In this document: piece by piece, positions 10,559-23,750 of the stretch
Numbering within the stretch: position 1 is the stretch's first letter
Layout: every line of letters begins with the position of its first letter
Source: Verrucomicrobiota bacterium
Lineage (GTDB): Bacteria > Verrucomicrobiota > Verrucomicrobiia > JABWAM01
Length of the DNA: 34,868 nucleotides
Direction of reading: 5' to 3'
NCBI GenBank assembly: GCA_016198745.1
Contig: JACQHZ010000040.1
Coordinates: forward strand, 1-34,868
Notes under the pieces: generated by a model
What the model was told of the DNA's origin: nothing
Seen by the model: the letters and a program-made list of their open reading frames with translations, nothing else
Database searches by the model: none
Made by a program: the position numbers and the translations under genes

Positions 10559-11644
10559 TCAGACGTTCGCTGAGGATGGTTCCGCGCAAGAAACGGCTCT
10601 CATCAGGCGCATCGCGTAATCATAAGCCTCCGGCGGCATTTCCTCCGGCACCGACGCCATGCCCAGAATCACCCCGCCTTCCCGCGACAACTCCATGAGC
10701 GAACGGATGTGTGATTCGATCTCCCGATGATCGTTCCGCGGCAGGATTCGCGTGTTGCAGACGCCTCCGATGAGTGCCAATTTGCTTCCATACTTGCGGC
10801 GCAAATCGGCCAGACCGGGATTGCAGCGGGGTTCCAGCGGATTGCACCCCTCGAATCCCGCTTCCAGAAGCATATCCAGCATCGGAGCGACGTTCCCATC
10901 GCTGTGAAAAAAGAAATGCTGACAGCCGGCCTTGCGGCAACTGGCGATGATGCGTTGATAGCGCGGCAAAAAATATCGCGCAAACATTCGCGGGCTGAAC
11001 ATCGGCCCCTTCAATCCCGCGAGGTCATCATAGACAAACAATCCCGTGTCGCAGGTGTGCGTCCGTTTCAAGGTTTCCAGCGCCATTTGTTCAAAGTGAG
11101 CGGCGACCTTGTCGAACAACTCGTCGCAAAAGGTTTCATCGCCCGCCATGTCCATCAGCAACCTGTCTTCACCGCGCATGAAATGACTGCGAATGTAAAG
11201 CCCGCCAATCTTTGTGAAGGCGCATTTGCCATCCTGATGGACCTTTTTCGCATGCTCCTCCAAGCCTGCGTATCGGCTTGGAAGGGCCGCCGGCTCGAAT
11301 TCAACGGCATCCAAATCCTTCGCTGTATTGAGAACCCGATCGATTTCCTCGAAAAAATAGCCGTTCGGTTTCGAGCGAACGATGCAACCCCATCCGTTGT
11401 TGGAAATGTCGTAACCGTCCTCGCGCCGCAGAACGCCCGCTTGTGACGGAAAAAAACGCTCATCACCGATGAGAATCACGGTGTCGTTTCGATAATGCGA
11501 AAGTGGATGGACCTCGTCGCCAACCCCCTTGAATGTGCGCCACTGTCGGACAAAGCCCGGATCATAGCCCGGCGTCCAGGTCGGGATTTCATTGCATCGC
11601 TCGAACCGCAGCGCGGCGAGAACGCGTTCCTTGGGAGTCGTCAT
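10559..11644 (-). CDS. URO-D family protein C (uroporphyrinogen decarboxylase-like)
   Basis: A 361-residue URO-D superfamily protein and first gene of the leftward catabolic run. The N-terminus MTTPKERVLAALRFERCNEI is the standard opening of the family. The central YDDLAGLKGPMFSPRMFARY, FFFHSDGNVAPMLDMLLEAG (His247, Asp249) and CNPLEPRCNPGLADLRRKYG are the family's C-terminal barrel elements. It keeps the His at the usual metal position but has no cysteine pair as clear as in protein A. No corrinoid protein or MtaB-like partner gene is visible in this window. The start ATG at 11644 is preceded by a gene-poor 40-bp stretch and then the inverted-repeat element at 11686-11828, so the promoter must lie in or near that element. 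Confidence 0.83.
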   Translation of the reverse strand: MTTPKERVLAALRFERCNEIPTWTPGYDPGFVRQWRTFKGVGDEVHPLSHYRNDTVILIGDERFFPSQAGVLRREDGYDISNNGWGCIVRSKPNGYFFEEIDRVLNTAKDLDAVEFEPAALPSRYAGLEEHAKKVHQDGKCAFTKIGGLYIRSHFMRGEDRLLMDMAGDETFCDELFDKVAAHFEQMALETLKRTHTCDTGLFVYDDLAGLKGPMFSPRMFARYFLPRYQRIIASCRKAGCQHFFFHSDGNVAPMLDMLLEAGFEGCNPLEPRCNPGLADLRRKYGSKLALIGGVCNTRILPRNDHREIESHIRSLMELSREGGVILGMASVPEEMPPEAYDYAMRLMRAVSCAEPSSANV

Positions 11645-11685
11645 TTGAATTCATAACCATGTTTCATGCGTGTATCCAAATCGAG

Positions 11686-11828
11686 TAAAATTTTTTGCAA
11701 CTACTCAGGTCATTCCCGCGAAAGCGGGAATCCAGTCTTATGAGTATGGCTTTGTGCGAGCACTGGATTCCCGCTTTCGCGGGAATGACGGCAAGCGAAG
11801 GGATGACCTGAGTAGTTGCAAAATTTTA
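11686..11828. repeat. MITE-like nested inverted-repeat element, copy 1
   Basis: The ends are inverted copies: 11686-11713 (starts TAAAATTTT, ends CAGGTCAT) and 11803-11828 (starts ATGACCTG, ends AAAATTTTA), differing by a 2-base indel. Inside, a 28-bp perfect inverted repeat (beginning GTCATTCCCGC at about 11710 and ending GCGGGAATGAC at about 11790) contains further small hairpins, ATTCCCGC-GAAA-GCGGGAAT and its mirror. There is no coding capacity. A shorter relative lies at 23779-23871. The right terminus supplies the TAA stop of the restriction-modification gene. This layout fits a non-autonomous palindromic element, but no transposase or target duplication was identified. Confidence 0.8.
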
Positions 11829-14800
11829 TCGCTGGACGCTCTCCTCCACCAGCTTGACTTCGCCGGGCGTCAGACCGTAGAGGGCATAGACAATTTGGTC
11901 AATGAGGCGGTCGGTGAAAACGATTTGGATGTCGAGCAGGACAAGTTTTTCTTTGGCGTTTTGAAAACGGGCGCGAATTTTCTCTTCGTCGGTCTCCTTG
12001 AGATGGATGCCCTGCGCGGCAAGCGCCCTGGCATTTTTGCGCAAGTGGGCGAATAGATCGGCGGATTCCAGTTTCCAAAATTCGTCCAGCTTGGTTTTGG
12101 GGGTGAGGCTGCGGACATCCATGCTGTGGAAATCTTTCAAGTCGGTCAGAAATTGTTTGGCGGCGGTCTGCTTGTCTTTGTTCAACGCCATCATTCGCGC
12201 GGCCAGGAACACCAGCAGATCGTGAACCACGTCGGCACGGTTTGATTTCAGTTGTTTCTCGACAAAACCCAGCGTCTCGGCCGCATCGTTCTTTGCAAGA
12301 CCGCGTTCGCAAAGCTCACGTCCTTGCGCGCCGTTCAACTTGCGTTCTGATGGCGGCGTGGTGAAGGCGATGAGGCGGATGGGAAGCACTCGCAATTGCG
12401 GCGCTTGGAATTGATAGTAACCACCGCTCATCCGCAGTGCGCCAAAATACGCCCCGTAAAGCGCAGCCATGAGATTGCTGTTAAGCAGTGCGAGCAGGTA
12501 GTGAAGATTGTGTTCCGAATCATACACGAAGTTTGTATTTGCAGACGCATATTCGCCGCTTTCATCAAGAAATGCTTCTATGCGAGCAGCCATCTTCGCA
12601 AAGACAATCTTGGGCTTTGCATACTGCTTTTTTCGCTCTTCCGTAACAGATGGATCCGATAAATCAAGATGAGGAGAAGGCATCAACCTGCCCTTGTGCG
12701 TTAAAGGGAACACCCCCCACAGGCTGGCATAGCGATCGATCAGACCCGTGTTGAGAAACTTTTTGGTTTGAGAGAGGGGCGTATTCGCCAAGGCGTTCGC
12801 ATAGGCATCGGCTTCAGCGGCCGTGCTGGAAGCCCGAACGGTTGTGCGCTTCTCCAAACTTTCGGAAATTTTCTGTGTCTTAAGAACCAGAGGCAAATGC
12901 TCTGACAAAAGGAATCCCCAGATTTTTTCTGGCAGCACAGAAAGGTTTGAACTGTCCTGGACAAAGACGGTTGTTTCCTTTGGATTCAAGGTGTCTTTTG
13001 GCACTTCGACCAAAATCTTGTAGTCATTTGCCGGCGCCGAATTTTCAATCACGCTGACGACGGGGTAAATTGACGGGTCTTCGAACACGCGGACACGTGA
13101 GACGTTCAGCAGATGAACCAATTTGGCGGAAGTGCAGAGATGATCCCGAAAAGCAACAGCGTACGGCGCGGACAAAAACTTGTTTGGAGTGATCAAAGAA
13201 CAGAGCCGCCCTTTCCGCGTCAGCTTAATGGCTTGTTCCAGAAAAAGGATGTAGAGGTCGTAAGCACCGGCCGCACTACTGAATTCCACAGCCCAATAAG
13301 GCTTCTCAAACTCCGAGAGCGCCTTGTTCAGTTCAATGGCGTTTACAAACGGCGGATTTCCGATCACTGCATCGAAGCCTGGATTCTCTTTGTGCGAACC
13401 GTCCTCGGTGAAAAAAACCTCGGGGAATTCGAGTTCCCAGTGGAAGTAAGGTTTGTCCAGTTCCTTGATATGGTAACGCTCCGCCGCTTCTTGCAATCTG
13501 TTCGCACCCGCCTGAGCCGCTGCCAGAACCGTCTTGGCTGCGGCCAAGTATTCCTCCTCGCTCAGCGGTCCATCAAAAAAGGCGTTGATCCAGAGGTCAG
13601 CGACTTTTTTGTATGGCGCGAGCCGGGGCAGGATTTCAACTTCCCAACGCTTTTCCTTTGCTTTCACCGCTGCCACCTCGCCGCTGGCTTGGGCTTCGAT
13701 TTCGTGAATCTGGCGAATGGATTCGGCAACGACGCGTTTGAAATCCGGTCCAAAGGTGAATTGGATTTGAGCAGGCGCAATGCCTTGTTTTCCGCGTGAT
13801 TTCTTTTCAGGAAGGCTGCCGAGTTGATCGAGGCGCGCGCCAATGAGCGAGTTGCCGCAACGCAGGTGGTGATCGAGAAAATTGAGCGGCTGATCGCTGG
13901 CGATGGTGGTGAGCCACAACGAAAGTTTCGCCAACTCGACGGCGAGGGGGTTAAGATCCACGCCGTAGATGCAGGCTTCAACCACGCGGCGTCGCCAATG
14001 GGCGATCTCGGCTTGTTCCTGGGATTCGCCCTTGGTAAATTCCGCCTGAAACTTCGTGGTGGGATGATACACGATTTCGTAAGCGAGGTAGGTGGTGGCT
14101 TCGACGAGGAAATGCCCCGACCCCATCGCAGGATCGCAGATGTTGAGTTTGAGAACTTCCTCGGCAAAGGAGTTGTCCTGTTTTCCGAATGCGCGCGCGG
14201 ATTTGACCGGTTCACGCTCTTCGATCTCTTTCAGCAACGGGGCAACGGTATGTTCAACGATGTATTTGACGATGTAATCGGGCGTGTAGTAGGCGCCGGT
14301 GGCTTTGCGTTCGGCTTTATTGGTCTGGAGCATCAGTTTTCCGTTTTCACGGGCGAAATGATGTTCCAGCAGTCCTTCGTAAATGGAGCCGAGTTGTTGG
14401 ACGCGCAGGCCGGCGTAGTCCACCGTCTCGATGGGGAGCGAGGGCTGATCTTTCTTCGGTAATGGATTGAAAAGCAGTTCGCGCAACACGTCCGCAAGCA
14501 CGGCGTCGCAGACGCACCATTGTTCAAGTTCGGGGTAATGCGCGGGATCGAACAGGCCGCCGTTGTAGCGGGGAACGTCAAATTCGCGGTTGGCTTTTTC
14601 GTCCGTGCCGTTAATCAGCCGGCAGAGATCGAGGATTTCGCGGTAGAGGCGCGTCTGAGTCCGGCTGTCATATTCGGCGAAACTTTTCAGCGCCGGGATG
14701 AGCCGCCGCAGTGAGAAGTGCTTGTAGTATTTGCGATTGGGACGGTCCAGAGGCAGCAAGGCGCGGCCTTCCGCATAGAGGATGAACAACAGACGATAGA

Positions 14801-15698
14801 GAAAGATCAAGCTGGCTTCATAAAGTCGCGGCAGAGCGGTGTCGGTGATGCCCTTCTCCATGCGCTCGGCGAAACCGTTGGCGAGAATCTCCAGGATGCC
14901 GAAGATGCGAAGCCGCAAGTCTTCCTCGAGTTTGCTCTGCGCTTCGGACGCGCCCTCACGAACAAGGTCGAGGCGACAGCGGCCTTGAACTTCGCGGACG
15001 AAAGCGGCAGGACAGAACAGCGCGAGGAAAAATTTGAAGTTCTCGAGCGACTTGATTGCTTCGCTCAATTCGATCTCAAAAAATTCGCTGGGCTTGGTTC
15101 CGCGGCAATAGAGCCGCCACGCGCTGCCGTTGGTCAGAATCCCCCATGAAATGACCTGGGCTTCATCAAGATAGGCGCGGATTTGCTGATGCGGATAACG
15201 TTGTTGATGCTTGCTGATTTGAGAGAGTGGATGGCCAAACTTTTTGGCTTCGAGGATGGCAATGCCGGTTTGGAACCGCTCTTTGATGCTTTTATCCGCG
15301 ACGGCCTCCTTTTCTTCCGCGCTGGCGTACAGGATGTAGTCAGGCTCCAAATCTTGTTTGGTATCGGGGAGACGAAGATTATCCGACCAGTCAAAACCAA
15401 GTTGTTGCAGAATTTTATCAATCAATTCCTGACGAACACCCATTTCGTTGTCGTAACGGCGTAATCCGAAGGCGCGTTTTTCGTAAAGTTCCTTGCAGAA
15501 CTGCCAAATCGGTTGTGTCCGAGCGTCGGTCGGCCACCAATCGTTTTTCTGAATGCGCGTCTTGAGATAGTGATCAGCGAAGAGACCCTCCGTCTGCCAA
15601 AGCCTGCGCGACTCCGGAAGACCCAGTTCGGGATGGAAATCGGGTTGCTTTCGCTTTGGCACGAAACGATTTATGCGATTGAAAATCGCCTTGGTCAA
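11826..15698 (-). CDS. Single-chain restriction-modification enzyme (type IIG-like, Eco57I-type methylase)
   Basis: A 1290-residue protein combining DNA cleavage and N6-adenine methylation. N-terminal nuclease: LEPDY (Asp120) and AILEAKKFGH (Glu150, Lys152) form a PD-(D/E)xK site. A helical linker leads to the methyltransferase: TGAYYTPDYIVKYIVEHTV (467-485), SAM motif I CDPAMGSGHFLVEA (521-534), acidic Asp581 in YGVDLNP, and catalytic NPPF (781-784). The last 400 residues, with GYYQFQAPQLRVLPI, are expected to recognise the target sequence. The start is a TTG at 15698 overlapping the stop of the toroid gene as TTGA; no in-frame ATG lies upstream of residue 86, so this start is only moderately secure. 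Base composition around 12400-13100 looks more AT-rich than flanking genes, suggesting acquisition. No separate S or R subunit is present. Confidence 0.9.
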   Translation of the reverse strand: MTKAIFNRINRFVPKRKQPDFHPELGLPESRRLWQTEGLFADHYLKTRIQKNDWWPTDARTQPIWQFCKELYEKRAFGLRRYDNEMGVRQELIDKILQQLGFDWSDNLRLPDTKQDLEPDYILYASAEEKEAVADKSIKERFQTGIAILEAKKFGHPLSQISKHQQRYPHQQIRAYLDEAQVISWGILTNGSAWRLYCRGTKPSEFFEIELSEAIKSLENFKFFLALFCPAAFVREVQGRCRLDLVREGASEAQSKLEEDLRLRIFGILEILANGFAERMEKGITDTALPRLYEASLIFLYRLLFILYAEGRALLPLDRPNRKYYKHFSLRRLIPALKSFAEYDSRTQTRLYREILDLCRLINGTDEKANREFDVPRYNGGLFDPAHYPELEQWCVCDAVLADVLRELLFNPLPKKDQPSLPIETVDYAGLRVQQLGSIYEGLLEHHFARENGKLMLQTNKAERKATGAYYTPDYIVKYIVEHTVAPLLKEIEEREPVKSARAFGKQDNSFAEEVLKLNICDPAMGSGHFLVEATTYLAYEIVYHPTTKFQAEFTKGESQEQAEIAHWRRRVVEACIYGVDLNPLAVELAKLSLWLTTIASDQPLNFLDHHLRCGNSLIGARLDQLGSLPEKKSRGKQGIAPAQIQFTFGPDFKRVVAESIRQIHEIEAQASGEVAAVKAKEKRWEVEILPRLAPYKKVADLWINAFFDGPLSEEEYLAAAKTVLAAAQAGANRLQEAAERYHIKELDKPYFHWELEFPEVFFTEDGSHKENPGFDAVIGNPPFVNAIELNKALSEFEKPYWAVEFSSAAGAYDLYILFLEQAIKLTRKGRLCSLITPNKFLSAPYAVAFRDHLCTSAKLVHLLNVSRVRVFEDPSIYPVVSVIENSAPANDYKILVEVPKDTLNPKETTVFVQDSSNLSVLPEKIWGFLLSEHLPLVLKTQKISESLEKRTTVRASSTAAEADAYANALANTPLSQTKKFLNTGLIDRYASLWGVFPLTHKGRLMPSPHLDLSDPSVTEERKKQYAKPKIVFAKMAARIEAFLDESGEYASANTNFVYDSEHNLHYLLALLNSNLMAALYGAYFGALRMSGGYYQFQAPQLRVLPIRLIAFTTPPSERKLNGAQGRELCERGLAKNDAAETLGFVEKQLKSNRADVVHDLLVFLAARMMALNKDKQTAAKQFLTDLKDFHSMDVRSLTPKTKLDEFWKLESADLFAHLRKNARALAAQGIHLKETDEEKIRARFQNAKEKLVLLDIQIVFTDRLIDQIVYALYGLTPGEVKLVEESVQR

Positions 15699-16757: not shown

Positions 16758-19700
16758 CTATTTCAACCACCAGGCATTTGGCGCAAGGTCCGCATAGGAT
16801 GGAAGCGGCAATTTTTCCGATTGTCGCAGATCGACCGACCAAAGGGACGCCCCGTCCTTTCGCCGGACAGCGCAGACGCGGCCGCGGCTGGCGCCGCACA
16901 AGATGACTCCGTCGCTTTCGAGTAATCGGCAGCCGCCGTTCAACGGCGCGCTCCAAAGCGGTTTTCCCGTTGGCGAGATCGCGTTCAGCGAGCCATCCCA
17001 GCGTCCAAAAATGACCGCGCCGCCATCTTCGGCAACGAGCATGTCGCTGACCGCTTCCAACGCAAGGGGGCCGCGCGACATGACGCCCGACTTGACGTCA
17101 AACAGGTAAACGCGGCTGGAGACCAGCCACGAGCAGTTATCCCATTCGAATTTGCGAAGCTCGCGGTCAAAACACTGGCTGGGCATCGCGGCGACGTAGC
17201 TGCCGTCCGGAGCGATTTTCACCGTCGGGCGAACCAGGTATTCGTCAATGCCATCGAAGTAATCCATGCTCCGGAATTCAGCGGTCGTTCGCCCCTGATC
17301 GTCCAAAACTGCGATATTGCCATTTTCATCCCCCGCAGCGAGGCGGTCTCCGTTGGGGGTCGCGTCGAGGGAATGCCCCATTCGTCCTTTCATGCGAAAC
17401 CAGGCGAGGGGATCCCAGTTGTTGGGGACCCCGGTGCAGGGGGGCGCCCAGTAGCCGTGACTTTCGTTTTCCCACATCCAGTAACGGATCATTTGCAGTT
17501 CGCCGAAGGGTTCAAACTCGCGGCGCCAGATTTCGGCGCCCGTTTCGGCGTTCAAGCAGAGGATCAAGCTCTTCATCTTGGCGCGGATTTCCGGTGTGGC
17601 GTTGCGATCCACGCCGCGACAGTCAATACTGCCGCCGCCCTCGAAATTGGGAATTTTGTCGGGCGCATCCCGCCAATAGGTGATGACGGATGCGAACACA
17701 CGCTGGCCGTCCCGCGTGACGCGCACCCGCTGAAGTTGGCGGCGAAAAAGTTTATCCGGATGACTGTAGTCGAAAGTCCAGATGGTCTTGCCATCAGCCA
17801 TTGCGCGGCATTCGAGTTGAGCTTGCGGTGTGCTCATGACAAGACGCCCCCCTTTCGGAGCGACTGCGAAATAGTCAGGTTCCGGCGGAACATTATCGTC
17901 ATAAAGGCTGCCCCAGAGGGTGTCCTCCGTTTGCGGCTCTGCTTGCCACAGGATGTTGCCCTTGTTGTCGGCCACCTGAATATGGGGTGGAAACGTCACC
18001 GCCGTTGCCGTGATGCCGTCGTCGGTCACCGCCACCTGGTGAACATAAAGCCCGTCCACTTTGCGGCTGATGGCGACCGCTCCATCCGCGCCAAGGTGAT
18101 GAAGATTCTCCCGGGGGCTGTCCGTACCAGCCACTCGTTTTCCCCCATTGGGACTGGCAGCGATCGCGGAAACATTGTGGCCGATTTCCTCCGCCCAGTC
18201 GGGGGGCAAAAGATGGAGCGTCCTACCAGTGATGGGACTTGCGATTCGGGGATTTGTGGCAGGCAGAAGATTCTTGAACTTCTTGAAGTCGTCCGGCAGC
18301 AATGCAACGCGAGCATTCTCCAGGCTTTGCCAGGGATTGGTGAACGCAACCTCTTTGCCTTTCGCGAGTGCCGTCAGGGCGGCCATCCCTTTGGACAAAC
18401 CGTCTGCATCGCCGCCAACCACCAGCAGCGTGTCGTGGCCGGAGGCGTAAGCGTTCTTCAGAAGCATGGAGACACAACGACCTTTCCCAGGGTAGTGTTC
18501 TGTGGGAAAACGCGGCAGGAAATCGGCGTCCACCAGCGGCTGCACCAGGGGATGGGTCGTCCCGATGGAGAAGATCACCAGGTCGCGGGGAATCCGCAGG
18601 TCCGGCAACATGCTCTGATCGCGCAGGTTCGCTTCCCGCCAGTTTTTCCCCTCGCATTCAGACGCGGCATTTTCCTCGACCGTACGCGCCGATTGTCCCG
18701 TGGACTCGATGGCGCGGACAAAGTCCTGCGCCTGAACCGGTTCGCGGATGGGGATCGTCAGGGGACGTTTTTGCAGGAACTCCCGGATCGCCTGCGGATC
18801 GAAAATGACGTTGTCCTCGCCCCAGACCGCCTCCGCCTTCGCCTGGCGCTGCGGTTCTACATCCAGAAGCTGAATGGAAGCGCCGGATCGCGAGCCGGTG
18901 ATCAACTCGCGCGCTGCCACCCTCAGCGCAGAGGCGGGGGTGTTGATGGCGGTTTGCAGGTCCATTTGCAGGCGTCCTTCGCGGGAGGTGGCTCGATAGA
19001 GGACGCTTTGTTTTGCGCCGTCATGGATCGTGATTTCCAGCGGCAGCGCCGCCGCCAGCGGTTTCCCGTCCGCTCCCAGAACCTCAACTCCGATGCCCAT
19101 GTTCAAACCCTTCTTGACGTTGCGCGGGACCGTGAGCCGCACGGACTTTGGCGCACGGGCAAGCGCGACGTAAACCTGAGCGGGGAGACGGTCGAAATCC
19201 GCTTGAACCAGTCCTTCACGACGCTGAAGTTCGGCGCTGACTTCATGGCTTTCGGTGAGCGAATAGAGGCGTCGATTTTTCCATTCTTGCATCTTCAAGT
19301 CGGCGCGTACGGGTGCCGTGACGAACTGATGCAGCATATAGATTTTTCGCGGCATCTCCGCCACCCAACGCCACGGCGCGGGGGTGCTGTTCAGAGCGAA
19401 ATAATAGGTCGCGTCTTCACCGCCGTTAAGGTGAGTAGTGATCACGAAGGGGTTGTCGCTTTGCAAGGCGGGCGCGAGCGTGGGCCAGATCTTGCGTTGC
19501 AGTTCGGAAACGGATTGGACGGCGAACTTTTTCATGGCCATCCACTTGAGGCTGCCGACCTCCGTTCCACGGTGTTGCTTCTCGAATTCACTCGCGTAGA
19601 GTTCGGCGTATTCGTTGAAATGGCATGCTATCCGGATCACACCCGGCAGCGTCAGCGTGGCGCTCTGCTGATCCGCGAAAATGACGCCGCCGCGGGATTG

Positions 19701-22280
19701 GAATCGGCGCAGGCCGTCCAGGGTTTCTTTCGGCAGGTCCGCGTCAATTCCGACCGCCACCAACGCGCGGATTTCGGGATGCACAGCGTCCATCAAATTG
19801 TGCTCATAGACAAAGGCGGGTTCCAATCCGGCCATGGAGAGCGAGACGTACGCCTGGTACAGTTTTCCCCCATACTTTTGCGTGGCGGCGGTGAGACCGC
19901 TGTGCCGCAGGCCGATGGATTCCAATGCCAGCAGGCCGATCCTGGCGCGTTTGTGGCACTCCTGAAAGGCAGTCCCATAGCGCTGCATGAATTTCAAATA
20001 GGTCATCCAGCGCTCACGGCTTCCCCACTGTCCATGGGTCCAGATGTCGGATGTGTTTGAGATAAATTCGTGATAACGGATGCCGCGGTCCGAGGCATCA
20101 AAGAAACCGGCGCTCGCGCCATGGGCCACGCCCTCGAAGAGGAAGCGCCAGGCGCCGGTGGGATTGAGGCACGCGAGTTTCGCTTCTTCGCCCATGGCGC
20201 GCACCGGCTTGCCCGCGCGCATGGCGTTGTAAAAAACAGCGCAGGCAAGGGCTTGCGCGTAAGGATCGTCAGACTGATCGCTGCCCTCCTTGCAGGCAAG
20301 AATCATATCGACGGTTGAAACTGCTCGATCCGGCTCGGAAACACCGCTCATATAACCCACATTGCTGGGAGCATAGGCGACGCCGTAATGCGTGCTCGGA
20401 TAAAGGTTGAAGCTGCTGATGGCGGAAGGAACGGATTCCCGCAGCGCCTCACCCATCAACGCCAGGTCGCGTGGAAACAAATCCTGCATGAAATGCGTCC
20501 ACTGGCGAAACATCCCAGGATGCGTTTGGGCGTTGAAGTTTTCATCCCGCGGAATCTCAGCGGCGTACGTGCTCCACCCGTGGCGTGGAAGAGCGCCTTG
20601 GTGACCGGTTTGCCGTTGGAAAATCTCCCAGGTCGCCTTTTGCGCCGCGGCACGAATCTCGGGCGGCGCCACATAAGGAGGGGTGCCTCCCATCGAAACC
20701 AAACTGAGCCAGCGTCCATAGTCCATTCCTTGAAAGGTCGGATAGCCCCTGGCGTTCTGCGCGTGGAGTGACACCGTGCGTTGCATCATGCCAGCGCCTT
20801 CCCTTTCGTAAGGGTCCATCGCGGGGGCATCAAACTTCATGAAACGGCCGACGATGCCCGCTCGAACGCGGACGCTTTCCTGCAGAAAAAAGTTGTAGGT
20901 GGAGGGGGCGCCATCGGCAGCCGCCGGCGGCAGATCCGGGTCGTTGGCAAAGGGAACTTTCAGACAGGTTCTGCCAAGGCGCGTGTCATCGCCGAGATCG
21001 CCCGCCGTGTAAGGGCTTAATTTCTCCTTGCTCGTTCCCCAATGCACGTTGCTGTCAAAAGCGGTCATGGTCACCAGATTCCCCTCGAAAAACGCATCCG
21101 TCCGCCGGCGAAGCTGGCGCAGGACCGCCGGGTCTGAAAGGGGCCAAATCCAATAGTTGTAGGTGTCGAACACATTATGCTTATTCATGCACGTCCCGAA
21201 AAGCGGCGCGGAACTGGCCTTCACTGCAGGGACGAAAAGAATCTCGCGGTGATCGCTGGCCGCGCCAAGTTGCGCGGCCACTCGATAGCGCCCGGACATG
21301 AGCGTGGCGGTAAAGCGGCCGGGAAGCAGGAGCGAAACGGTCTTGTCATCGCCTTGATCCAGACGCAGTTCGCGCGACGCGAGCGCGAGCCGATGTCCGA
21401 TGGGAGTTTCCAGTGTAAGGATGATATCGGCGCGCACCGGCTGTTTGCCGGCGCAAGCCACGTTCAACTCGACGTCCTCGCCGGTCAGGAAACATTGACG
21501 CTGACGTTCGCAAAACAGGCGGACAAAATGACCTTCCGCCGGATTCGATATCGCCAGATCGAATTCGGCGAAAGGCCCCACGTCCGGCGAGGTGGAATGA
21601 GATGGAGACGCCACGACGCGCAAACAGTATCGGCCGCTCTCCATGGACGGAAAATCAATGGCGTATGATTCCCCCGTCGTCCGCACGGGAAGCGCGCGCC
21701 ACGGATCATCCGCAAAAACGGAAAACCGCAACGGTCTCAGGAAAGCGCGGACGCCCCGGTCTTTCAGCAGGGCATTACGCGCCACCTTCATCGGCAAAGC
21801 GCCTGCTCCGTTGAGCTTGTTGCTGGAGATTCCGACGCCCCAGAAGGCGACCTCCGCGGAGTCCTCAAATCGGCCGTCGTAAAAAAGACTCCAGAACGGA
21901 TATTGAGCGTCGGAAATCGTCAGGGCATGGTGAACGTCCACGGGCGAATCCGGCCATGAAATCTTCCGCATGTCGTCGCGCGAATAATTGCAGCGCACCT
22001 CAAATCCGGCGCCGGAAACCGGCAGATTCAGCCGCAGATACTCGAAATACCCCTTGCGGGAAATCTCCTTCTGAAAAGCGCCGTCGAGTTGCCGGCACGT
22101 CCAACGCAGTTGCTTGGCGTTCCATTTTGCGAGCGTGTCGATGCCGCGCATCACCACGCGCACAGGGCGGGTTGGTTCCGCCTCAATCGCCATCGCAGAA
22201 TCATGCGCCAGAAAGAAAACCAGCCCTGCGCCCACGAGGGATAAAGTTGACATGCAAAACAGCTTGGTGTCAGAACCCAT
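16758..22280 (-). CDS. Giant secreted multidomain protein: glycosidase-like core plus C-terminal PQQ-like beta-propeller
   Basis: About 1840 residues. The chosen start, ATG 22280, gives [20 protein letters not shown] followed by a hydrophobic stretch and AMA, a plausible signal peptide; an ATG at 22253 is an alternative. Residues about 35-360 look like beta-sandwiches. From about 365 ([15 protein letters not shown]) to 900 the sequence resembles a GH42/GH-A-type barrel with an amidotransferase-like segment ([20 protein letters not shown]). Beta-rich modules follow near 1040-1120 ([20 protein letters not shown]). From about 1350 there are repeats of PQQ/WD40-like blades: [55 protein letters not shown]. 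Catalytic residues cannot be assigned. The start overlaps the pseudopilin stop by 11 bases, implying coupling. Likely exported and acting on polysaccharide, by context. Confidence 0.72.
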
Positions 22281-23028
22281 CCCAAGCAAAGTACCAGCGG
22301 GTGTCGGCCGGCGCACGGGATAAGTACTGCTGAGAAGTCACCCATTGCACGTGATTGTCCAGGTAGAGCGCGTTGCCGCCTCGGTCGGAGCGATGCTGGA
22401 TGTCCTGAGCGTCGTTGATTTGGCCCCACATTTCTTCCAGCACGAGAACATTCTGCGGCGGATCGCTCGCCTTTTGTCGCGCCAACGTCCACGGATGCCA
22501 GTTCTGAATCGGCGGCCCGTACGCTGATCCGTCGATCGTGTCGTCGGTGCCGTAGTACGTGTAGTCCGAATCGGTGGCAGAAAAGAAGTATGCGCCGGCG
22601 CCGGTGCTGTCCTTCTTGCGCGCCCGCGGGCAGTACAAGGACGGCGTGGCGTTTGGATCGAGAGAAACGCCCCCCGTTGGTCTTCCGGGGAGGTAGGCAG
22701 GCACCAGCAGACGAAGATTGGCGTAGGTGGAGGCGTAGTTGTAGGTCCGCGGGTTGCCGCCCGTGGCATCGAACGCGGGACGCGGGAAGCGGCTCTCATT
22801 GTCTCCCGCATAGAGTTGGAGCGCCATCCCAATCTGACGCAGGTTATTGACGCAAGCCGTGCGCCAGCTCAGTTCCCGAACTTTGCCCAAGGCGGGAGAA
22901 AGCAGCGCCATGAGGATTGAAATGATGGCGATGACCACGAGCAATTCCACCAAAGTAAAGGCCGAGTGACGAGTGGCGGGTGGCGAGTGGCGAGCGCCGA
23001 AGGCCGAATGTCGAAGGGGCATCGTCAT
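22270..23028 (-). CDS. DUF1559-type pseudopilin (prepilin-like N-terminal methylation site)
   Basis: The 252-residue product has a type IV prepilin/type II secretion pseudopilin signal: cleavage expected before Phe24 in [20 protein letters not shown], with Glu29 at mature position +5. Ala rather than Gly occupies -1, common in PVC bacteria. After the helix comes [20 protein letters not shown], typical of the DUF1559/xcpG-like group, and the C-terminal [18 protein letters not shown], the usual end motif of that group. The leader before the cleavage site (residues 5-22, [18 protein letters not shown]) is encoded by short imperfect DNA repeats. Start at ATG 23028, with another two codons later. 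It sits 23 bp after the DNRLRE gene and overlaps the giant secreted protein. Such pseudopilins are abundant in PVC genomes and often accompany secreted enzymes; their exact role is unsettled. Confidence 0.92.
22961..23017. repeat. Short imperfect tandem repeats in the pseudopilin leader
   Basis: The stretch reads as variations of GAGTGGCGA/GAGTGACGA and GGCCGAATG/GCGCCGAAGG, giving alternating His-Ser-Ala-Phe and Arg-His-Ser codons on the minus strand. It occupies exactly the n-region of the prepilin leader and stops at the conserved cleavage site. Repeat length variation would change leader length without touching the mature protein. Confidence 0.6.
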
Positions 23029-23051
23029 GGAGAATAATCCGTCAGCAGTGA

Positions 23052-23750
23052 TCACTGATTTCGCGTCTTCGGCGCCGCCGCGGGCGAGAACTCGATCTCG
23101 AGCCGCGGCATTTCGTTCTCGTTCCCCGCGCCGCGATTCGCGTCGCCCCAGTGGATTTCGGGCGCATTCGGCGCGGCGATGAAGGCGATGCCAAAATTGT
23201 TGGAAGGGCTGTTCATCCAGAACCGCAATTCGCTGGTGATGTCGAATTCGTGCATACCGCTGACGGCAACGGCGGGAAGCGCCTGGTCTTTGATGAACGG
23301 TGCGGCGGCGAGGTCCTTGCCGATGCGCATGCCTGGCGCATCCCAGGCCTCGTAGTTGAAGACATCCCGCTGATTCCAGGTGGTCGCGGTTTCCGTCCAG
23401 GGTTTGAGGACGCGATAGACGCTTCCCGTGGTGGCGGATGCGGCGTTGATGTTCACGAACTTGAGCGCGGCCCTTGTGATGGTGCCGCCCGGCGGGATGT
23501 GTTTGGCGAAGGCGCTGTTCAACTGCCAGAGCACGCGCCCTTCGGCGGCGGACGCCCCGCTCCATTTCAGCGAGCCGCACGCGCCCCGGTTCAGGTCCGG
23601 CGCCTCTTCGAGCAGGACGTTGTCCTGCATCAGAACGTTGGTGATCATGCCGGCCTCGAAACCGAAGGTGATCGTTTCCGCCGGCAAGGACGCGCCGGCC
23701 CAGGCGAGGCACGCCACGAGCGCGATGCGAACGATGAACGGGTTTCTCAC
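23052..23750 (-). CDS. Secreted DNRLRE-domain protein
   Basis: With a GTG start at 23750 the product has 232 residues: a signal peptide ([20 protein letters not shown], cleaved near LPA) and one DNRLRE (disaggregatase-related, CBM96-like) beta-sandwich. Family markers include [31 protein letters not shown], and the C-terminal [20 protein letters not shown] and [14 protein letters not shown] modules occur in surface and glycan-active proteins and probably bind carbohydrate. An in-frame ATG at 23891 would add 47 residues encoded by the inverted-repeat element ([19 protein letters not shown]), which is implausible ahead of a signal peptide. It is the first gene of the leftward operon with the pseudopilin and giant enzyme, divergent from the GDSL gene. 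Confidence 0.82.

What the first reader, a model, noticed from the sequence alone, without database searches (positions are those of the whole stretch)
11686..11828. Inverted-repeat element provides the stop codon of a restriction-modification gene
The TAA of the 1290-residue enzyme lies in the right terminal repeat, so the element either inserted into the gene's 3' end or moved together with it. It also occupies the upstream region of the URO-D operon and may act as promoter or insulator.
Basis: seen in the sequence. Interest (0 to 1): 0.55.

Follow-up and report, generated by a model that had tools for sequence, protein, structure and literature searches.

The report
Miniature transposon beside an intact gene
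A 123-base miniature mobile element, one of dozens in this genome, landed six bases after a gene's own stop codon, so it did not supply the stop; its interior is a pair of common bacterial hairpin repeats whose way of moving is unknown.

Summary
The inverted repeat is real, but its edges were misread. The element is 11697-11819 (123 bp). The outer AAAATTTT is a palindromic 8-bp target duplication, not element DNA. The TAA (11826-11828) is one host base plus two duplication bases; joining the flanks either way keeps CGA-TAA. The three homologues whose C-termini could be compared, one a paralogue in the same genome, end within three residues of the same place and have no such element behind them. 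The stop codon predates the insertion.

The element belongs to a MITE family in this (probably Verrucomicrobiota) MAG: 77 TIR sites, 38 bounded copies (0 with the reversed pattern), consensus end GTAACTAYTCAGGTC, duplication length peaking at 8 bp. This fits IS66. In a relative (G050) the same end follows a short IS66-transposase-like C-terminus. No complete partner was found.

Inside lies a head-to-head dimer of CGTC-1-type REP hairpins (dRS3-like). 33 of 38 copies share one polar layout; 53 of 69 such hairpins in the genome lie beside these ends. CGTC REPs are published as lacking a dedicated transposase, so IS66 ends as their vehicle is the interesting point, though hairpins also spread without them (G282).

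Promoter or insulator: no evidence.

The parts
11697..11819 (.). MITE, 123 bp (element proper)
   Evidence: TIR-bounded; 38 such elements in the DNA held from this genome, 0 with the reversed pattern; 8-bp duplications
11697..11711 (+). left TIR GCAACTACTCAGGTC ('direct' arm: the REP tag GTC is the last 3 bases of the TIR)
11805..11819 (-). right TIR ('spacer' arm: 17-nt stretch between CAGG of the TIR and the REP)
11709..11735 (+). CGTC-1-type REP hairpin, stem ATTCCCGC, loop GAAA, tail CCA
   Evidence: feature list of PMC3733652
11763..11789 (-). second CGTC-1-type REP, head-to-head with the first (tags outside)
11820..11827 (.). right target-site duplication AAAATTTT (palindromic)
11689..11696 (.). 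left target-site duplication AATTTTTT (6/8; alternatively AAAATTTT at 11687-11694 plus TT)
11826..11828 (-). TAA stop codon of the restriction-modification gene; pre-existing, 6 bp from the element
11826..15698 (-). type IIG / DrmMI-like restriction-modification enzyme, 1290 aa, C-terminus intact
10559..11644 (-). URO-D-family gene downstream on the same strand; ATG 52 bp from the element

Best explanation
It is a non-autonomous MITE with IS66-type ends whose interior is a head-to-head dimer of CGTC-1-type REP hairpins. An IS66-family transposase acting in trans (inferred) inserted it at an A/T palindrome 6 bp past the existing TAA of the restriction-modification gene, duplicating 8 bp (shown for the family; 6 of 8 bases still equal here). 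It lies in what had been a gap of about 50 bp before the URO-D gene (inferred from the coordinates). It neither supplied nor changed the stop codon. Any effect on the neighbours would be through the very stable hairpin in read-through RNA (inferred).
For: 77 TIR sites and 69 hairpin sites in the genome at up to 3 mismatches, 0 with the reversed control patterns. 38 TIR-bounded elements in the DNA held, 0 with the reversed pattern. Duplication length peaks only at 8: exact in 11 of 33 (1 of 33 at length 7, 0 at the other lengths from 4 to 12), at least 6/8 in 22 of 33, against 13 of 1056 mismatched pairings; in the later set of 38, exact in 12 of 37 and at least 6/8 in 24 of 37. 33 of 38 elements have one direct and one spacer arm. 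A second MITE family with the same TIR in G157 has exact 8-bp duplications in 7 of 13. In G050 the same TIR follows a 55-residue frame that matches the C-terminus of the IS66 transposase model (NF033517, positions 351-381 of 387, E 7.8e-6), with related ends at two more contigs. The stop codon is kept in both empty-site reconstructions. Homologue tails after the shared motif: 13, 10, 13 and 13 residues (window, L172, L095, L155).
Against: No orthologous empty site was observed, only reconstructed. The window's own duplication is imperfect (6/8). 13 of 37 elements show fewer than 6/8 matches. 4 of 38 elements have other sequence in both arms and 1 more in one arm. No complete IS66 element with this TIR was found. 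The G050 match is 25.2 bits, far below the model's cut-off of 180, and Pfam gave none for the same peptide. The one IS66 stretch that PF03050 found in the MAG (C195) has no convincing matching end: best 4 mismatches of 15, noise level. 24 of 27 other homologue loci lack the C-terminal motif and could not be compared. The MAG is 74% complete and in 522 contigs.
Confidence: 0.85

Rival explanations
1. The element supplied the stop codon: it inserted inside a longer gene and cut off C-terminal residues.
For: TAA abuts the repeat. In another copy (C48, L077) the TIR does supply a TAA, with about 9 further residues in the reconstructed empty site. GTAG REPs are reported to provide stop codons (PMC3733652, passages).
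Against: TAA is host plus duplication sequence and survives in both reconstructions. The three comparable homologues end within 3 residues of the same place. This copy's TIR end is GCAAC, which holds no TAA.
Confidence: 0.03
2. The element and the restriction-modification gene moved together as a unit.
For: They are adjacent, and restriction-modification genes often move (recalled).
Against: The element has its own flanking duplication; the TIR occurs on many other contigs; the paralogue at C172 has none behind it. The neighbours of the other copies were not annotated one by one.
Confidence: 0.04
3. It is a plain REP/BIME cluster spread by a RAYT (Y1) transposase; the TIR is only conserved flank.
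For: Six Y1_Tnp matches in the genome; REP dimers inside; 16 of 69 hairpins have no TIR at up to 2 mismatches.
Against: 8-bp duplications and TIRs fit a DDE transposase; none of the six Y1 loci, held with about 1.5 kb on each side, has the hairpin at up to 4 substitutions.
Confidence: 0.08
4. The copy is now a working RNA element: mRNA 3' protector, read-through attenuator or insulator between the two genes.
For: The minus-strand RNA of 11645-11840 folds at -90.2 kcal/mol, z -12.0; it sits right after a stop codon between co-directional genes, a position reported for REPs (PMC3733652, passages).
Against: Any such inverted repeat folds well. No promoter-like or terminator-like match in the element. 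Conservation at this site was not tested.
Confidence: 0.15

Closest known systems
IS66-family insertion sequences and MITEs derived from them
   Same: Ends beginning GTAA (PMC11946415, PMC12888890) and 8-bp direct repeats (PMC11946415, PMC3281130); passages read. A relative's IS66-like C-terminus ends beside the same TIR.
   Different: No transposase inside; TIR consensus GTAACTAYTCAGGTC, not GTAAGCG; the window copy begins GCAAC; no complete autonomous partner found.
CGTC-1 REPs, including Neisseria dRS3 (PMC3733652, 2013)
   Same: GTC tag, 8-bp stem starting AT, 4-base loop, CCA tail, head-to-head dimers; REPs near gene 3' ends.
   Different: Here the dimer is bounded by TIRs with 8-bp duplications; the paper reports CGTC repeats in five phyla, Verrucomicrobia not among them, and no associated transposase.
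H. neapolitanus CGTC-1 dimers inside 41-bp palindromes (same paper, section 7)
   Same: CGTC dimer regularly enclosed by an outer palindrome.
   Different: Different outer sequence; no target duplication or transposase mentioned in that section.
GTAG REPs / REPINs with RAYTs
   Same: Paired hairpins in inverted orientation, many copies.
   Different: Different tag; 8-bp duplications and TIRs; no RAYT flanked by the hairpin found.

Membership tests
MITE | short, TIR-bounded, multicopy, no transposase gene | tested here: met
   123 bp; 38 bounded copies, 0 in the reversed control; 77 TIR sites
MITE | target-site duplication | tested here: met
   peak at 8 bp only; window copy 6/8
IS66-derived | 8-bp duplication | tested here: met
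IS66-derived | ends begin GTAA | tested here: met
   51 of 76 arms of the 38 bounded elements begin GTAA, 7 begin GCAA; column consensus GTAAC. The window copy itself has GCAAC at both ends
IS66-derived | same TIR bounds an IS66 transposase gene | tested here: inconclusive
   55-aa IS66-like C-terminus beside the TIR at a contig end of G050 (NCBIfam E 7.8e-6 but below cut-off, Pfam none); no complete element; 30 held IS66 loci, own included, gave no clear match
IS66-derived | mobilised in trans by the IS66 transposase | not testable with these tools
   needs a transposition assay
CGTC-1 REP | CGTC/TGTC/CCTC tag, 8-bp stem with AT first, 4-base loop, CCA tail | tested here: met
   right REP CGTC-ATTCCCGC-GAAA-GCGGGAAT-CCA; left REP has GGTC because its tag overlaps the TIR (criteria; Figure 2 consensus not seen)
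CGTC-1 REP | head-to-head dimers predominate | tested here: met
   tags outside in the window; 33 of 38 elements have a tag-outward arm at both ends, one direct and one spacer
GTAG REP / RAYT REPIN | GTAG tag and RAYT gene flanked by the repeat | tested here: not met
   GTC tag; 6 Y1_Tnp loci without the hairpin

The most novel reading that the evidence does not exclude
IS66-family transposases are a vehicle for CGTC REPs, which are in print as lacking a dedicated transposase: REP dimers fused to IS66-type ends at the shared GTC are amplified as IS66 MITEs and can then shed free hairpins.
Probability: 0.25. Interest if true: 0.6.

Novelty: new variant of a known kind. Interest (0 to 1): 0.36.

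Why it matters
The stop-codon claim falls away and shows a trap: a palindromic target duplication mimics a longer terminal repeat. What remains is a concrete, testable link between an orphan REP superfamily (CGTC, including dRS3) and a known transposase family.

Tried and rejected
Element supplies the stop codon: rejected. RAYT origin: no hairpin at the six Y1 loci. Rfam match in the window: none. tRNA: none. Own IS66 fragment as autonomous partner: end not matching beyond noise; one search showed a second, 26-residue IS66 stretch in the MAG (C363), not followed. IS66 genes in G050, G157 and G088 found by PF03050 with the TIR close by: none convincing; one G050 IS66 apparently split over two contigs has other ends (GTTATCGTCC..., both flanked by GATTGATC). 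Viral contigs: 65 hits to the 15-mer, no more than chance gives by my own rough estimate, no opposing TIR pair within 4 kb.

Crude ORF context classified 27 of its 38 elements (18 unidirectional, 7 convergent, 1 divergent, 1 inside), but at least one call was wrong: at L023 the true neighbours are a GntR gene and a prepilin-like gene on one strand, so I draw little from it. The first arm classifications were mis-specified and replaced. One search counted hairpins beside a TIR at up to 4 mismatches (58 of 69); its reversed control reached 27 of 69, so I use the count at up to 2 mismatches (53 of 69, control 0). The 158 arms likewise hold many chance matches (84 with the reversed pattern) and were replaced by the 76 arms of bounded elements. 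In one search, frames of L023, L073 and L057 also stop at a TIR TAA; I do not count them, because the L023 frame is antisense to real genes and the other two have duplications of only 1/8 and 2/8.

Full report
Observation. The nested inverted repeat is present. Six-frame ORFs give the 1290-aa minus-strand gene 11826-15698 and the URO-D-family gene 10559-11644 downstream on the same strand. The enzyme matches Eco57I, N6_Mtase and TaqI_C in Pfam; its best PADLOC match is DrmMI (E 1.1e-109), and type IIG models follow.

Family and borders. The window lies in a 6.4-Mb, 522-contig MAG, 74% complete. I take it as Verrucomicrobiota from the named best homologue L095; the tools give the MAG no name. 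The TIR pattern occurs 77 times and the hairpin 69 times (up to 3 mismatches); the reversed control patterns occur 0 times. Copies end at GTAAC...GTTAC and are flanked by direct repeats. In the 239 kb held from this genome, 38 TIR-bounded elements are found and none with the reversed pattern. Duplication length was tested from 4 to 12 in a first set of 34 elements, 33 with both flanks: only 8 stands out (exact in 11 of 33; at least 6/8 in 22 of 33, against 13 of 1056 mismatched pairings). In the later set of 38, with a degenerate TIR pattern and eight more loci, it is exact in 12 of 37 and at least 6/8 in 24 of 37 with both flanks held. The duplications lean towards GANNNNTC.

The stop codon. 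In the window the element ends at 11697 and 11819. The right duplication AAAATTTT (11820-11827) is self-complementary, so it looks like more terminal repeat. TAA is 11828 (host) plus 11827-11826 (duplication). Removing the element and either duplication copy leaves ...GTC CAG CGA TAA. A paralogue at C172 (60% identity over the aligned region) ends LVEGR*, the named Verrucomicrobia MAG locus L095 (50% identity in its best segment) ends LVESTTKI*, and the more distant G282 locus L155 (44% over residues 762-1108) ends IVEQAGGK*; the window ends LVEESVQR*. None of the three has a TIR within 200 bp downstream. One search examined 28 loci besides the window; L147 is the window's own locus again, and the other 24 had no such motif in the stretch held, so they say nothing either way. 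The stop is therefore natural.

That ORF has no Pfam match.

Which transposase. GTAA ends and 8-bp repeats are published for IS66 (passages in PMC11946415 for both, PMC3281130 for 8 bp, PMC12888890 for the ends). Here 51 of 76 arms of bounded elements begin GTAA. In G050, of another family in the same class, the TIR stands at contig ends, as repeated elements do. At C94 the adjacent frame matches the C-terminus of the IS66 transposase model (NF033517 positions 351-381 of 387, E 7.8e-6, 25.2 bits against a cut-off of 180; Pfam none), and C109 and C110 carry related ends. G157 holds a separate MITE family with the same TIR and exact 8-bp duplications in 7 of 13 copies. Of 188 relatives including the MAG itself, 4 hold the TIR 17-mer at up to 1 mismatch. 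Against: no complete autonomous element was found, and 30 IS66 loci (own included) recovered with the MAG's own IS66 fragment show no clear copy of this end.

What is inside. The hairpin fits CGTC-1 REPs as described in PMC3733652 (passages and section 7 read, Figure 2 not seen): GTC tag, 8-bp stem beginning AT, 4-base loop, CCA tail, head-to-head dimers; in Neisseria these are dRS3. That paper says CGTC repeats apparently lack a dedicated transposase and lists five phyla without Verrucomicrobia. Here 33 of 38 TIR-bounded elements have one arm in which the REP's GTC is the end of the TIR and one arm with a spacer (17 nt in 39 of 47 spacer arms). At up to 2 mismatches, 53 of 69 hairpins have a TIR beside them (46 on the tag side, 7 only at the other end), 16 do not, and the reversed control gives 0 of 69. 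One copy of the same composite, duplication 7/8 read by eye, is in G475, of another class. Of 387 phylum genomes, 8 hold the hairpin (up to 1 mismatch) and 9 the exact TIR 15-mer, own genome included in both counts. G282 has 15 hairpins and no exact TIR, and G475 has 45 hairpins but 2 exact TIR sites, so these ends are not the only route.

Effect on neighbours. No promoter-like or terminator-like match falls inside the element. The minus-strand RNA of 11645-11840 folds at -90.2 kcal/mol, z -12.0, as any such repeat would. A terminator, protector or insulator role is untested.

Literature. The listings of my searches on IS66 and MITE, Verrucomicrobia MITEs, MITEs with stop codons, and CGTC repeats showed no paper that describes IS66-bounded CGTC REPs; the library is open-access only and I read passages of four papers. 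PMC7593972 (listing only) is the one paper there that prints the hairpin core.

Noticed in passing
L077 1007-1155 (G000 C48): Another copy whose TIR end GTAAC supplies the TAA stop of a 285-315-aa ORF; the reconstructed empty site would run about 9 residues further.
   Followed up: partly
L172 3052-6996 (G000 C172): Paralogue of the window's restriction-modification enzyme in the same genome, 60% identical with a diverged stretch around residues 850-1100, no element behind it.
   Followed up: yes
L023 1617-1757: Copy whose exact 8-bp duplication CGCGCATG contains the start codon of the downstream prepilin-like gene.
   Followed up: partly
L098-L125, G157 loci only: A distinct MITE family (mostly 96-98 bp) with the same TIR (GTAACTATTCAGGTCAG) and exact 8-bp duplications in 7 of 13 copies.
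   Followed up: partly
L127 and L142 (G050 C86, C111): An IS66 element apparently split over two contigs with ends GTTATCGTCCGAACATTGACC and GATTGATC on both sides.
   Followed up: partly
L036 1528-1877; L076 931-1105: TIR-bounded elements with unusual interiors: a 350-bp copy with extra sequence, and a 175-bp copy without the REP hairpins.
   Followed up: no
window 16758-22316, minus strand: 1852-aa ORF with a PQQ_2 match near its C-terminus, next to an ORF with a prepilin-type motif (22270-23712).
   Followed up: no
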